Shown in pieces: positions 34 to 4,100 of a stretch of DNA of 8,328 nt (position 1 is the first letter of the stretch; each line of letters opens with the position of its first letter). Location of the stretch: contig QMSF01000026.1 in the NCBI GenBank assembly GCA_003649565.1, positions 1 to 8,328 on the forward strand, given 5' to 3'. Under the pieces are notes generated by a model. The model saw nothing but the letters and a program-made list of their open reading frames with translations, was not told where the DNA came from and made no database searches. Origin of the DNA: Thermoprotei archaeon (lineage in GTDB: Archaea; Thermoproteota; Methanomethylicia; Nezhaarchaeales; WYZ-LMO8). The translations under genes and the position numbers were made by a program.

Positions 34-126
34 TGGTGGGCCCGCCCGGACTCGAACCGGGGACCACCCGCGCTCTGAGGTTAGACCTCGTCAGGCGGGT
101 ATCCTAACCAACTAGACGACGGGCCC
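34..126 (-). tRNA. tRNA-Val(GAC), intron-containing, CCA encoded
   Basis: Read on the minus strand, the 7-bp acceptor stem pairs GGGCCCG (126-120) with CGGGCCC (44-38). The discriminator is A (37) and the terminal CCA is encoded (36-34). The T arm is CCCGG-TTCGAGT-CCGGG (61-45), the variable loop has 5 bases, and the D arm contains TAGTTGGTTAGGA. The anticodon stem CCCGC/GCGGG (99-95 with 71-67) encloses a 23-base loop rather than 7 bases. Removing 16 bases (88-73) leaves the loop CTGACGC with anticodon GAC (92-90), which reads GUC and GUU valine codons. The intron sits at the canonical 37/38 position. The gene is transcribed away from the alkyltransferase gene to its right. Confidence 0.95.
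73..88 (-). other. BHB intron in tRNA-Val (16 nt, position 37/38)
   Basis: The pre-tRNA folds into a canonical archaeal bulge-helix-bulge. The outer helix is the anticodon stem. The 4-bp central helix pairs CTGA with TCAG, and the two 3-base bulges are CGA (5') and AGC (3'). The inner stem GGT/ACC carries a 3-base loop. Cutting each bulge after its second base releases 16 bases and leaves a normal 7-base anticodon loop. The geometry matches that of the insert in hypD (3101-3122), so it calibrates that call. Confidence 0.92.
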
Positions 127-955: not shown

Positions 956-2101
956 ATGATGAGCAAGTTGTTGATGATACCAGGCCCAACGAACGTTCCT
1001 CCAAGAGTTCTTGAGGCCATGTATAGACCAATAATAAATCATAGAGGACCGGAGTTCGAGGCTCTATATGCTGAGCTTTTCGAGAACTTGAAGTACTTCT
1101 TTCAGACAAGCTGGGATGTAATACCATTTACCTCGTCAGGTACAGGAGCCATTGAGTGCGTCGTTAGCAATGCTATAGCTCCAGGAGATAAGGTGTTGGT
1201 TCCATTATATGGCAATTTCACTAACAGAATAAAGGAGATTGTAGAGGCCTATGGAGGAAAGGCTATTACATTTGAAGTGCCAAAGAGAGAGGCTGTAACA
1301 GCCAAGCAAATCGAGGAGACTTTAGCTCGAGAGAGCGTGAAGATGGTCTATATAGTCTTTAATGAAACTTCTACCGGCGTTGCTGTAAAGGACTTAAAGG
1401 AGATTGCTAGGATAGCTCATGAGCATGGAGCGCTAATAGCTGTTGACGCCATATCAGGCCTTGGTGGTGACGAGCTTCCAGTAGAGGAATGGCAAATAGA
1501 TTTTTGCGTTGCTGCAAGCCAAAAGTGTCTAGCTGGACCTCCAGGCATGAGCATGGTCTCGATTAGCGATCGAGCATGGGAAATTGTGAATTCCATGAAG
1601 CCTAGAAGTCATTACTTCAATTTGAAGTTGTACAAAAAGTTCTTCTTAGAGAGAAGGCAGCCGCCCTTTACACCAGCAGTTTCAATATTCATTGCAGTGA
1701 ACGAGGCATTAAAGCTCCTCAAAGAGGAAGGAATAGAGAATAGAATTAAGAGACATAGGATTTGTGCTGAGGCTTTCTATAAGGCCTTTGAGGCCATGGG
1801 CTTAAAGTGCTATGCAAAGCCTGAGTTTAGATCGAACACCGTGATAACTATTGAGGTTCCCGAAGGCATAAGGGACGTAGACGTAAGGAGGATCATGAGG
1901 GAGAAGTACAATATATCCATTGCTGGCGGGATGGCTGATCTGAGAGGTAAGGTCATTAGGATAGGCTCGATGGGAATCATAAATCAATCAATGGTAATAA
2001 CTACCATAAGCGCTCTTGAATGCACACTTAAAGAGTTAGGGTATAAGGTCGAATTGGGGTCAGGTGTTGAAGCCGCTTTAAGCGTGTTTTCTAGGTTTTA
2101 G
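956..2101 (+). CDS. Class V PLP-dependent aminotransferase (serine/alanine--glyoxylate or --pyruvate type)
   Basis: This is a fold-type I aminotransferase of the AGXT/serine-glyoxylate group, predicted to move the amino group of alanine or serine to glyoxylate or pyruvate. Seen in the sequence: the N-terminal MIPGPTNVPPRVLEAM with substrate-loop character, the cofactor phosphate-contact region SSGTGAIE, Asp in AVDAISGLGG (D166 counted from the ATG at 950) that would contact the PLP ring nitrogen, and the Schiff-base lysine in AASQKCLAGPPG (K192 on the same count). The length of about 381 residues is typical. The ATG at 950 opens the frame, but the GGTGG site favours 956 or 959. The 3' end overlaps the hypD stop codon by 4 bases, tail to tail. 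Proteins of this family were once annotated as a 'soluble hydrogenase small subunit'; the neighbouring hyp gene should not revive that name. The exact substrate is not readable here. Confidence 0.9.
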   Translation: MMSKLLMIPGPTNVPPRVLEAMYRPIINHRGPEFEALYAELFENLKYFFQTSWDVIPFTSSGTGAIECVVSNAIAPGDKVLVPLYGNFTNRIKEIVEAYGGKAITFEVPKREAVTAKQIEETLARESVKMVYIVFNETSTGVAVKDLKEIARIAHEHGALIAVDAISGLGGDELPVEEWQIDFCVAASQKCLAGPPGMSMVSISDRAWEIVNSMKPRSHYFNLKLYKKFFLERRQPPFTPAVSIFIAVNEALKLLKEEGIENRIKRHRICAEAFYKAFEAMGLKCYAKPEFRSNTVITIEVPEGIRDVDVRRIMREKYNISIAGGMADLRGKVIRIGSMGIINQSMVITTISALECTLKELGYKVELGSGVEAALSVFSRF

Positions 2102-3244
2102 AGCCTTAGGCTAAAGGCATCTTCAGCACTTTTTATTCCATGCTTCATAGCTATATGGCAAGCTCCCTCTATGCTAACAGCACATGGGCCTATGGGGTTT
2201 ATTGGTGTACATGCCTTATTGTAGAGGGGGCATTCCCAAGGATATATCAAGCCCTTTAAGACGTCAGCACATCTGCATCCCTTAGGCATTTCTTCTTCAA
2301 TCGAAGGCTCCACGTCAAAACGCTTTAATGCATCATATTCTTCAAACTCCTTTTTCAGTTTGAGCTTTGATTCAGGTATTGTTCCGATCCCTCTCCAGTC
2401 GCCGTCGCATGGCTCAAATACCTCCCACATGGCCTTTTTCGCCTTTACATTTCCCTCTCTTCTTACGCTTCTTGAGTACTCTATCTCAACGTCGCATCTA
2501 CCATCCCTTATTTGCTCGAGAAGCATTAATATCGACGCTAAGACATCGAGGGGCTCAAACCCTCCTATGACCATGGGCTTACCATACTTCTTGGCTATGG
2601 GCTCATAGGGCTCTGAGCCTATAATCGTTGATACATGACCTGGACATATGAAGCCCCCTATGGCTATATCGCCGCTTTTGAGTAAATGCTCCATAGCTGG
2701 CGGTATCAGCCTATGACTAACTATTACGCTGAAGTTTCTTGGAACTCCTTTGAGAAGCTCAATAGCAGTTGTTGGTGCTGTAGTCTCAAATCCTATAGCG
2801 AAATGCACCACTTCAACGCCTAGTCTTTCAGCTATTTTTATTGAATCCATTATGCTATAGACTATTCTGATGTCGGCGCCCTTCGCTTTAGCCTTCATGA
2901 GCGACATGCCTTTAGTTGCTGGAACTCTAAACATATCGCCGTAAGTTGTCAATACCGCCTTTCTTGATAGAGCGAGGTCTATTGCTGCTTGAATTTCTGC
3001 TACGCTTGTAACACATACTGGACATCCTGGACCTGATCTTACCTCAAGTCCTTTAGGAAGCAGGCTTCTAAGCCCAAATCTCGATATGGTCCATTCGTGT
3101 CTCGGCCGGGGATTAACCCCGTGTGCCGCATACATGCATTATTATCAAGCGCTCAAGTGATAATTCCTTGAAGACGTCGCGTATTTTCTTGGAGAGAGCA
3201 CGAGCTATGCTTTCATCTCTAAAGGGCTCTACGATGTCTGCCAT
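2098..3244 (-). CDS. hypD: Hydrogenase maturation factor HypD, gene interrupted by a 22-nt BHB intron: join(3244-3123, 3100-2098)
   Basis: HypD, with HypC, carries the iron centre to which CN and CO ligands are added before transfer to the [NiFe] hydrogenase large subunit. The spliced gene has exon 1 (122 bases, ATG at 3244) and exon 2 (1003 bases), giving 374 residues against 373 in E. coli. The N-terminus MADIVEPFRDESIARALSKK leads to MHVCGT (Cys39), which joins HEWTISRFG from exon 2; then comes GPGCPVC (Cys67, Cys70). These equal C41, C69 and C72 of E. coli HypD with a constant offset of two. Later landmarks are YGDMFRVP, VVHFAIGFETTAPTT, CPGHVSTIIG, GGFEPLD and the cysteine-rich C-terminus (GCRC, ECPLYNKACTP, SIEGACH) that binds a 4Fe-4S cluster. 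Unspliced, exon 1 ends after 43 residues at a TAA inside the intron. An uninterrupted frame from 3135 exists, but its first 12 residues (MYAAHGVNPRPR) match nothing and lack Cys39. A TATA box 25 bases upstream and no Shine-Dalgarno suggest a leaderless mRNA. Confidence 0.92.
3101..3122 (-). other. Archaeal BHB intron in hypD mRNA (22 nt)
   Basis: On the minus strand the order is TG (outer helix), CGGC (central helix), ACA (5' bulge), CGGGG (inner stem), TTAAT (loop), CCCCG (inner stem), GCCG (central helix), AGA (3' bulge), CA (outer helix). The central helix CGGC/GCCG has 4 perfect pairs, the bulges have 3 bases each, and the inner stem has 5 perfect pairs. The outer helix is weak: two pairs, then alternating mismatches, a wobble and three further pairs. 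Cutting AC|A and AG|A releases 22 bases and joins GGC-AC to A-CAC-GAA-TGG, coding for GTHEW in phase 2. A 22-base insert is not a multiple of three and brings an in-frame TAA. About 15 of its 22 bases are G or C, richer than the surrounding gene. Confidence 0.9.
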
Positions 3245-3305: not shown

Positions 3306-3863
3306 ATGACGACGAACGTTTTGGCAATAGGCGATTTTCACATACCGTCGAGAGCTCGTTGGATACCTGATGCTTTAGAACGTGAAGTCACCAAGGATAA
3401 GTACGATATTGTCTTATGTACTGGTGATTTAACGAGCGAGGCAGTAATAACATGGCTTGAAAAGTTGGGAAAGGAGATTTACGTTGTTAGGGGTAATATG
3501 GATCACCTTAAGCTACCAGCTCATGCCGTCATTGATGTAGAGCAGCTAAAAATAGGTGTTTATCATGGTGCTGGAATATACCCTAGAGGTGATATTCCAA
3601 AACTTACAATGAAAGCCAAGCAGCTAGGAGTTGACGTGCTGGTTACTGGGCATACTCATTACCCCCAAGTGGTTATGGTTAAGGAGCATAAGGTTGTCAT
3701 CGTTAATCCAGGTTCAGCTACAGGTGCTTGGGGCGGCGATGAAAGAGCATCTTTGATACCCAGTTTTGCAGTTATGCAGGTTGATAAGAGGAATTTGAGA
3801 GTTCAAGTGAAGGAGGTTAAACCTCATGGGATTGAAGTTGCCAAGTATGAGTTCACGCTCTAA
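3306..3863 (+). CDS. YfcE/MJ0936-type metallophosphoesterase (Vps29-like fold)
   Basis: This is a small calcineurin-like phosphodiesterase of 185 residues, the usual length of the family. The two-metal site is readable: GDFHIP (Asp10, His12), GDL (Asp41), GNMD (Asn64, Asp66), YHG (His87) and GHTHYP (His116, His118), followed by the structural NPGSAT (134-139). Archaeal and bacterial relatives hydrolyse phosphodiesters in vitro, but the natural substrate is generally unknown, and nothing in the sequence narrows it. Eukaryotic Vps29 shares the fold but has lost catalytic residues; here they are intact. The gene lies between hypD and hypC on the opposite strand and converges on hypC with only 3 bases between stop codons. 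I see no direct evidence tying it to hydrogenase maturation. Confidence 0.9.
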   Translation: MTTNVLAIGDFHIPSRARWIPDALEREVTKDKYDIVLCTGDLTSEAVITWLEKLGKEIYVVRGNMDHLKLPAHAVIDVEQLKIGVYHGAGIYPRGDIPKLTMKAKQLGVDVLVTGHTHYPQVVMVKEHKVVIVNPGSATGAWGGDERASLIPSFAVMQVDKRNLRVQVKEVKPHGIEVAKYEFTL

Positions 3864-3866
3864 ATA

Positions 3867-4100
3867 TTAAAGTTCAACGCTCATTGTCTTGGCTATTTCC
3901 CTCCATAACTTCAAGGTCTCCTCGGCTTCTTCTTGGTCTAACACTTGAATTGCATAGCCTGTATGGACTAAGACGTAAGTGCCTGGTTGCACCTTCTCGC
4001 TCAGCAATGTTAGCATAACTTCTCTTTTAACTCCCCCAAAATCGACGAGTGCTTTATCTCCCTTGACTTCTACTACTTTGCCTGGCACTGCTAAGCACAT
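3867..4100 (-). CDS. hypC: Hydrogenase maturation chaperone HypC
   Basis: HypC (HypC/HybG/HupF family) is the small partner of HypD in the scaffold for the Fe(CN)2CO group, and then chaperones the hydrogenase large-subunit precursor. The 77-residue protein starts with the diagnostic MCLAVPGKV, whose Cys2 becomes the metal-binding and partner-binding cysteine, and carries the conserved histidine in VLVHTGYAI (His46). The length is typical and the frame is intact. No Shine-Dalgarno precedes the ATG, while a TATA box lies about 29 bases upstream, so the mRNA is probably leaderless or nearly so. hypC and hypD are often adjacent in one operon. Here they share a strand but are separated by an opposite-strand phosphoesterase gene, so each needs its own promoter. 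Confidence 0.96.
   Translation of the reverse strand: MCLAVPGKVVEVKGDKALVDFGGVKREVMLTLLSEKVQPGTYVLVHTGYAIQVLDQEEAEETLKLWREIAKTMSVEL

What the first reader, a model, noticed from the sequence alone, without database searches (positions are those of the whole stretch)
3101..3122. Protein-coding BHB intron in hypD
A 22-base insert breaks the hypD frame and brings a TAA stop. Its ends sit in the two 3-base bulges (ACA and AGA) of a bulge-helix-bulge with a perfect 4-bp central helix (CGGC/GCCG) and a perfect 5-bp inner stem (CGGGG/CCCCG, loop TTAAT). Cutting each bulge after the second base restores CGT-HEW, the conserved HypD motif, and a 374-residue protein with cysteines at 39, 67 and 70. Structure, splice rule, reading frame and family alignment all agree on one junction. 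BHB introns in archaeal mRNA are very rare (cbf5 is the classic case); I know of none described in hypD. The gene would be misannotated as N-terminally truncated.
Basis: partly seen in the sequence, partly recalled or inferred. Interest (0 to 1): 0.95.

Follow-up and report, generated by a model that had tools for sequence, protein, structure and literature searches.

The report
Predicted splicing intron in archaeal hypD
A hydrogenase-assembly gene (hypD) of an uncultured archaeon carries a 22-base insert that stops its reading frame and is predicted to be cut out of the messenger RNA by the cell's tRNA-splicing enzymes; 15 other archaeal hypD genes carry such inserts at or within two bases of the same point, which would make hypD the second archaeal protein gene, after cbf5, with a well-supported intron.

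Summary
Minus-strand bases 3122-3101 interrupt hypD; leaving them out restores a 374-residue HypD with the CGTHE motif, and the insert ends lie in the two 3-base bulges of a bulge-helix-bulge (BHB). I found 15 further hypD genes with a 16-37 nt insert there: 6 in the Nezhaarchaeota clade, 1 in another lineage of that class, 3 Bathyarchaeia, 5 in the phylum of Hermodarchaeota (Asgard). Of all 16, 15 have a perfect 4-bp central helix and 3-base bulges at a register that restores CGTHE; one has 3 of 4 pairs. The helices covary, including a synonymous exon base with an intron base. A covariance model built without Asgard sequences found the five Asgard cases. Related genomes encode two splicing-endonuclease paralogues (11 of 13) and RtcB (12 of 13) and carry the published cbf5 intron. 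Translational bypass fits poorly: take-off and landing codons match in 1 of 16. Splicing itself was not observed; no transcript data were at hand. It is a new member of a known kind (cbf5-type archaeal mRNA introns) in a gene for which my searches found no earlier report, probably with more than one origin.

The parts
3123..3244 (-). hypD exon 1 (ATG 3244-3242; codons 1-40 and the first two bases of Thr41)
   Evidence: pN/pS 0.29 over exon 1 in 7 Nezhaarchaeota-clade genes
3101..3122 (-). predicted 22-nt BHB intron ACGGGGTTAATCCCCGGCCGAG, with a TAA in the exon-1 frame
2098..3100 (-). hypD exon 2 (third base of Thr41, then HEWT... to the stop)
3125..3128 (-). exon strand of the BHB central helix, CGGC (last base of the Cys39 codon and the Gly40 codon)
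3103..3106 (-). intron strand of the BHB central helix, GCCG
3122..3124 (-). bulge 1, ACA; predicted 5' cut between 3123 and 3122
3100..3102 (-). bulge 2, AGA; predicted 3' cut between 3101 and 3100
3107..3121 (-). inner hairpin CGGGG-TTAAT-CCCCG inside the intron
   Evidence: covariation
2098..3135 (-). 345-aa ORF read through the intron from an internal start; the form in the protein database (P0001)
3867..4100 (-). hypC-like ORF, 77 aa (MCLAVPGKV...); named from a recalled motif, not from a family search
34..126 (-). tRNA-Val(GAC) with a predicted 16-nt intron at 88-73 in the same kind of BHB (CTGA/TCAG, bulges CGA and AGC): a canonical splicing substrate in the same window

Best explanation
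The 22 bases that interrupt this archaeal hypD gene are most likely an mRNA intron, predicted to be cut out by the tRNA-splicing endonuclease at a bulge-helix-bulge and the exons joined by the RtcB ligase, because leaving them out restores HypD exactly and 15 other archaeal hypD genes carry inserts at or within two bases of the same point with the same kind of structure. Shown by sequence: the frame break, the BHB, the restored protein, covariation, the enzyme genes in related genomes, and the cbf5 intron in those genomes as a positive control. Inferred: that the endonuclease (probably an alpha2-beta2 type, judging by two paralogues) cuts after the second base of each bulge, that RtcB seals the exons, and that the 22-nt piece leaves, possibly as a circle. 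Without removal the ribosome would stop at codon 44, or start inside and make a HypD lacking Cys39, the counterpart of the essential Cys41 of E. coli (counterpart by the CGTHE motif, recalled for E. coli). The intron was probably gained more than once: one Bathyarchaeia case uses a site 2 nt away with a different central helix.
For: (1) 16 of 16 insert-bearing hypD genes found have a 3-base-bulge BHB at a register whose excision restores CGTHE; 15 of 16 with all four central pairs. (2) Inserts are 16-37 nt; every unspliced exon-1 frame ends in a stop (inside the insert in 12 of 16, in exon 2 in 4), so none can be read through. (3) Covariation: in 10 sequences 98.2% of cells paired against 86.8% in shuffles, all five inner pairs changed on both sides, 0 of 500 shuffles as high on covariation score; in 15 same-site sequences the fourth central pair is CG, UG or GC (14 of 15 paired), a synonymous exon base with an intron base. 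(4) Blind test: a covariance model built on ten Thermoproteota sequences, searched in 227 genomes of another phylum, gave 5 hits, all 5 hypD genes with an insert. In 398 genomes of its own phylum it gave 7 hits of 70.5-81.9 bits, all seven from genomes whose sequences trained it, and 25 hits of at most 36.4 bits with the 42-nt intronless span. (5) hypD gave one match in 9 of 10 intron-bearing genomes checked, plus a 57-base piece in the tenth. (6) Two endonuclease paralogues in 11 of 13 genomes, RtcB in 12 of 13; the alpha subunit of G007 matches PDB 3p1z chain B, E 1e-49. (7) cbf5 is interrupted in all 13 of the same genomes; in 10 of 13 the BHB could be scored at the published site, 8 of 10 with a perfect helix, 2 with three pairs (site from PMC2738675). 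(8) L101-L103, sisters of intron-bearing L112, lack the insert cleanly. (9) At the site 15 of 15 same-site genes use TGC for Cys and none uses GGA for Gly, against 86 of 161 TGC and 101 of 399 GGA elsewhere in the same exons; distinct intronless genes 86 of 122 TGC.
Against: No transcript or cleavage data. The outer helix is 2 bp plus weak pairs in the window. Local folding energy is ordinary (z -0.48). BHB-like shapes are not rare in the window (8 on two strands). L261 has a mismatch in the central helix, L014 only two contiguous inner pairs. The endonuclease and ligase were found in related genomes, not in the window's own, which is not held; G004 showed no RtcB and G002 and G004 one endonuclease gene each. 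The enzymes were not searched in the five Asgard genomes. The sequences are not independent, so codon-use counts and shuffle numbers overstate the evidence. A single assembly could carry an error, though the same truncated protein is recorded on 3 contigs (P0001).
Confidence: 0.93

Rival explanations
1. Ribosomes skip the insert (programmed translational bypass, as in phage T4 gene 60), helped by the hairpin.
For: A stop and a hairpin follow the take-off point in most of the genes.
Against: Bypass of the gene 60 kind needs matching take-off and landing codons (recalled); they are identical in 1 of 16 genes (1 of 11, 0 of 5), whereas cutting by the BHB rule gives an ACN threonine codon in all 15 same-site genes. 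Bypass does not explain why an exon base pairs and covaries with the insert, or the 3-base bulges.
Confidence: 0.03
2. hypD is a pseudogene or the insert is a sequencing or assembly error.
For: The frame is broken, and metagenome contigs can carry errors.
Against: Sixteen genes from different assemblies carry inserts at or within 2 bases of one point, with covarying structure; both exons are under purifying selection in 7 Nezhaarchaeota-clade genes (pN/pS 0.29 and 0.165; pS is near saturation, so the ratios are rough); hypD is essentially single-copy in the 10 genomes checked.
Confidence: 0.015
3. The cell uses an N-terminally truncated HypD started inside the gene, as databases annotate it; the insert stays.
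For: All 12 best database hits, the window's own protein among them, are recorded in truncated form.
Against: The truncated form lacks Cys39, the counterpart of E. coli Cys41, which is described as essential (PMC12130793, passages seen). Exon 1 keeps an open frame, a start 41-44 codons before the junction and purifying selection in the seven clade genes, which an untranslated stretch would not.
Confidence: 0.02
4. The BHB is cut but mainly to destroy or regulate the message (conditional splicing), not to make HypD constitutively.
For: The insert sits next to the residue on which hydrogenase assembly depends; in Haloferax an endonuclease-cut BHB lies in the 5' UTR of an mRNA (PMC7714728, passages seen).
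Against: Nothing in the sequence shows a switch; the intron varies in length and loop.
Confidence: 0.05

Closest known systems
cbf5 pre-mRNA intron of Crenarchaeota (Watanabe 2002, seen only as a reference; Yokobori 2009, PMC2738675, passages seen)
   Same: Short BHB intron at or next to the codon of an active-site residue, breaking the frame of a protein-coding gene; occurs in the same genomes as the hypD intron.
   Different: Different gene (hydrogenase assembly, not pseudouridine synthase); site in the Thr codon after Cys-Gly of HypD; recurs in Thermoproteota and in the phylum of Hermodarchaeota; the passage seen calls the newly studied cbf5 structures unconventional BHBs with two exceptions, while 15 of 16 hypD introns have the full 4-bp helix and 3-nt bulges.
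Archaeal tRNA BHB introns
   Same: Same 3-4-3 bulge-helix-bulge and cut rule; a 16-nt example lies in the tRNA-Val of this window.
   Different: In an mRNA, without the tRNA body and with a weak outer helix.
HVO_1309 5' UTR BHB intron of Haloferax (PMC7714728, passages seen)
   Same: mRNA substrate of the splicing endonuclease.
   Different: Untranslated region, not a coding frame.
Unconfirmed intron predictions in other archaeal and viral protein genes (mentioned in PMC2738675)
   Same: Proposed short inserts in protein genes.
   Different: That paper says splicing was not confirmed for any gene other than cbf5; I did not see the cited works.
T4 gene 60 translational bypass (recalled)
   Same: Hairpin insert in a coding frame.
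   Different: Needs matched codons; not met here.

Membership tests
Archaeal protein-coding BHB intron (cbf5 type) | Short insert breaking a conserved protein-coding frame, absent in relatives | tested here: met
   22 nt with TAA; intronless L101-L103 are sisters of intron-bearing L112.
Archaeal protein-coding BHB intron (cbf5 type) | BHB with two 3-base bulges separated by a 4-bp helix at the exon-intron borders | tested here: met
   perfect in the window and in 15 of 16 in all; 3 of 4 pairs in L261.
Archaeal protein-coding BHB intron (cbf5 type) | Cutting in the bulges restores the exact family sequence | tested here: met
   CGTHEW and a full-length HypD.
Archaeal protein-coding BHB intron (cbf5 type) | Hetero-oligomeric splicing endonuclease in the organism | tested here: inconclusive
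   Two PF01974 paralogues in 11 of 13 related genomes, one in G002 and G004; the window's own genome is not held and the subunit make-up is inferred.
Archaeal protein-coding BHB intron (cbf5 type) | Ligase RtcB in the organism | tested here: inconclusive
   12 of 13 related genomes, not G004; own genome not held.
Archaeal protein-coding BHB intron (cbf5 type) | Spliced mRNA observed | not testable with these tools
Group I / group II intron or intein | Hundreds of bases with ribozyme core, or an in-frame intein ORF | tested here: not met
   Inserts are 16-37 nt.
Translational bypass (T4 gene 60 type) | Identical take-off and landing codons (recalled) | tested here: not met
   1 of 16 identical.

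The most novel reading that the evidence does not exclude
hypD carries a hot spot for mRNA introns: BHB introns have arisen repeatedly at one codon next to its iron-binding cysteine in Thermoproteota and Asgard archaea, making [NiFe]-hydrogenase assembly depend on the tRNA-splicing machinery in whole lineages, Asgard archaea included.
Probability: 0.6. Interest if true: 0.92.

Novelty: new member of a known kind. Interest (0 to 1): 0.86.

Why it matters
A 2020 paper states that, beside the 5' UTR case it describes, only one BHB intron had been reported in archaeal mRNA, that in cbf5 (PMC7714728); other protein-gene introns had been predicted without confirmation (PMC2738675). hypD would be the second well-supported protein gene, probably with more than one origin at nearly one site, so intron gain by the endonuclease route becomes open to study. 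It also means that hypD of a whole clade stands in databases without its first 40 codons and without a cysteine described as essential, and that gene callers for archaea miss mRNA introns. The five Asgard cases would place splicing of a protein gene by tRNA enzymes in the group from which the eukaryotic host lineage is thought to come (recalled).

Tried and rejected
Single-sequence folding energy gave no support (z -0.48). A BHB scan of the window shows that such shapes occur by chance (8), so I did not rely on shape alone. A test of whether L143 shares a clade with the others did not finish (part C). One shared origin for the Nezhaarchaeota clade and the Bathyarchaeia pair is not rejected (p 0.267); adding the L112 group is borderline (p 0.044). 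My first pN/pS script compared unaligned exon 2 (0.32); the codon-aligned value is 0.165. My cbf5 pattern did not match G008, G009 and G011; there the interruption is visible and a BHB fits by eye but was not scored. Twelve of the 80 loci, and 25 of the 108 loci L081-L188, gave no motif match and were left out of junction counts; 5 of those 108 repeat L001-L004 and L014 and were dropped as duplicates from the tree and from the codon counts. In Bathyarchaeia the match list was cut, and the model search uses strict filters, so further introns away from the main register, like G084's, may have been missed. The seven strong hits and the two are sequences on which the model was built; only the five are new finds. 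How many of the 227 genomes hold hypD was not determined. On seven single genomes the model gave five hits, all of the intronless 42-nt span. Literature: searches gave no report of a hypD intron in what their listings show; in the two papers holding hypD, intron and archaeon the passages shown concern other things. PMC12397907 was looked into for mRNA introns; only its reference list turned up. Subscription papers are mostly not in the library.

Full report
What is there. The window encodes, on the minus strand, a HypD whose frame is broken by 22 bases at 3122-3101. Leaving them out gives 374 aa that match the HypD model TIGR00075 over residues 5-362 and the solved T. kodakarensis HypD over residues 4-363, with MHVCGTHEWT intact. 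The insert ends lie in the bulges ACA and AGA of a BHB with central helix CGGC/GCCG. Cutting after the second base of each bulge leaves GGCAC + ACACGAATGG, that is Gly-Thr-His-Glu-Trp. The window also holds a tRNA-Val(GAC) that ARAGORN could not name as it stands; without a 16-nt BHB intron it is called tRNA-Val(gac).

Chance. Shuffled insert letters gave an equal or better BHB at a protein-restoring register in 7 of 20,000. For the other ten genes of that call the counts run from 0 to 64 of 20,000, and for the five Asgard genes from 2 to 110 (L261 scored with three central pairs). Against this, BHB-like shapes as such are common (8 in the window) and the fold energy is ordinary.

Relatives. 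A search of 5.8 billion proteins (7,999 candidates scored, 120 listed) showed that the 12 best hits, the window's own protein among them, lack exon 1; the three that name an organism are Nezhaarchaeales or Nezhaarchaeota. Of the 120 listed proteins 93 have an intact CGT-HE or CGS-HE; 9 show His-Glu preceded by x-Pro-x, which in the window is the reading of CCG-ANN at the intron end and in the others is inferred to be so; 18 did not match the motif, 11 of which start beyond it. Inserts: L001 25, L002 20, L003 22, L004 22, L108 21, L178 23 nt (Nezhaarchaeota clade, 100* with the window in the HypD tree); L112 26 nt (another lineage of that class, sister to intronless L101-L103); L014 33 and L151 37 nt (Bathyarchaeia); L143 33 nt (Bathyarchaeia, cut site 2 nt upstream, central helix TGTG/CACA). 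In the class of G003, 34 of 40 genomes gave a hypD match: 7 with an insert, 25 intronless, 2 with partial matches only. In the class of Bathyarchaeia 191 of 256 genomes have a hypD match and 3 inserts are known: 2 first seen by protein search and recovered by the model, 1 by its in-frame stop.

A blind test. The covariance model R1 was built from ten Thermoproteota sequences. In 398 genomes of the phylum it gave 32 matches: 7 at 70.5-81.9 bits spanning 62-68 nt, all from genomes whose sequences trained it, and 25 at 36.4 bits or less spanning 42 nt, the intronless length. So it separates the two states but found no further case in that sample. In 227 genomes of the phylum that holds L041 (Candidatus Hermodarchaeota, Asgard) it gave 5 matches, and all 5 are hypD genes with 16, 16, 17, 17 and 24-nt inserts at the same point. 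None of these trained the model. Four have a perfect central helix, CGGG/CCCG; L261 has 3 of 4 pairs. The change from C-G to G-C in the fourth central pair joins a silent codon base of the exon to an intron base.

Selection and copy number. In the seven Nezhaarchaeota-clade genes pN/pS is 0.29 in exon 1 and 0.165 in exon 2 with pS near saturation, so the numbers are rough. hypD gave one match in each of 9 of the 10 related intron-bearing genomes in which it was searched; in G084 there is also a 57-base match at a contig start. The five Asgard genomes were not searched for a second copy, and the window's own genome is not held.

Machinery and positive control. Two tRNA-splicing endonuclease paralogues lie in 11 of 13 genomes, one in G002 and G004; RtcB in 12 of 13, not in G004. 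The 13 include three genomes without the hypD insert (G008, G009, G011). The alpha subunit of G007 aligns to PDB 3p1z chain B without a gap over residues 10-81; the second subunit, of G041, matches solved splicing endonucleases too. cbf5 is interrupted in all 13 genomes. The published cbf5 intron lies between the first and second letter of the catalytic Asp codon (PMC2738675, passages seen). My pattern reached 10 of 13; excision there restores GHGGTLDP or GHAGTLDP at that place, 8 of 10 with all four central pairs and 2 with three.

Rivals. Bypass: take-off and landing codons agree in 1 of 16. Truncated HypD: it would lack the residue equivalent to E. coli Cys41, called essential in PMC12130793 (passages; equivalence by the CGTHE alignment to the archaeal structure and by recall for E. 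coli). Error or decay: contradicted by recurrence and selection.

Origins. The tree with 16 intron-bearing rows needs at least 5 changes of state, 4 forced by starred branches (4 and 3 for the 11). These are quick trees with some long branches. L143 has a shifted site and helix and so probably an origin of its own; the rest may be one or several gains. Gain and loss cannot be told apart by these counts.

What is known. PMC7714728 (passages) says that apart from its own HVO_1309 case only the cbf5 mRNA intron had been reported; PMC2738675 mentions unconfirmed predictions in other protein genes. I found no report on hypD. I therefore file it as a new member of the cbf5-type archaeal mRNA introns: the features that can be read from the window are met, the enzymes are shown only in relatives, and in vivo splicing remains to be shown.

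Noticed in passing
L245-L257 (genomes G001-G005, G007-G009, G011, G040, G041, G084, G263): The cbf5 gene of all 13 genomes examined is interrupted at the published crenarchaeal intron site, with 18-23 nt inserts in the 10 that could be scored; the 2009 survey (passages seen) places it in Desulfurococcales and Sulfolobales, so its range is wider than that survey.
   Followed up: partly
window 34-126, minus strand: tRNA-Val(GAC) with a predicted 16-nt canonical BHB intron at 88-73, which ARAGORN leaves unnamed.
   Followed up: yes
G263:C2:90883-93678 and G084:C38: RtcB in G263 and Cbf5 in G084 match in two pieces within long open frames (1032 and 884/792 aa), perhaps inteins, in genes of or near the splicing pathway.
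   Followed up: no
L023 and L029: Contigs labelled Chloroflexota and Patescibacteria carry hypD that groups with Aenigmatarchaeota (100*): perhaps mislabelled bins or transfer.
   Followed up: no
window 3306-4100: hypD and the hypC-like ORF lie on one strand, separated by a YfcE-family phosphodiesterase gene on the other strand.
   Followed up: no
P0001-P0012, P0066, P0074, P0083, P0086, P0109, P0116: Public HypD proteins begin inside or after the predicted intron; nine appear to contain translated intron sequence at their N-terminus.
   Followed up: partly
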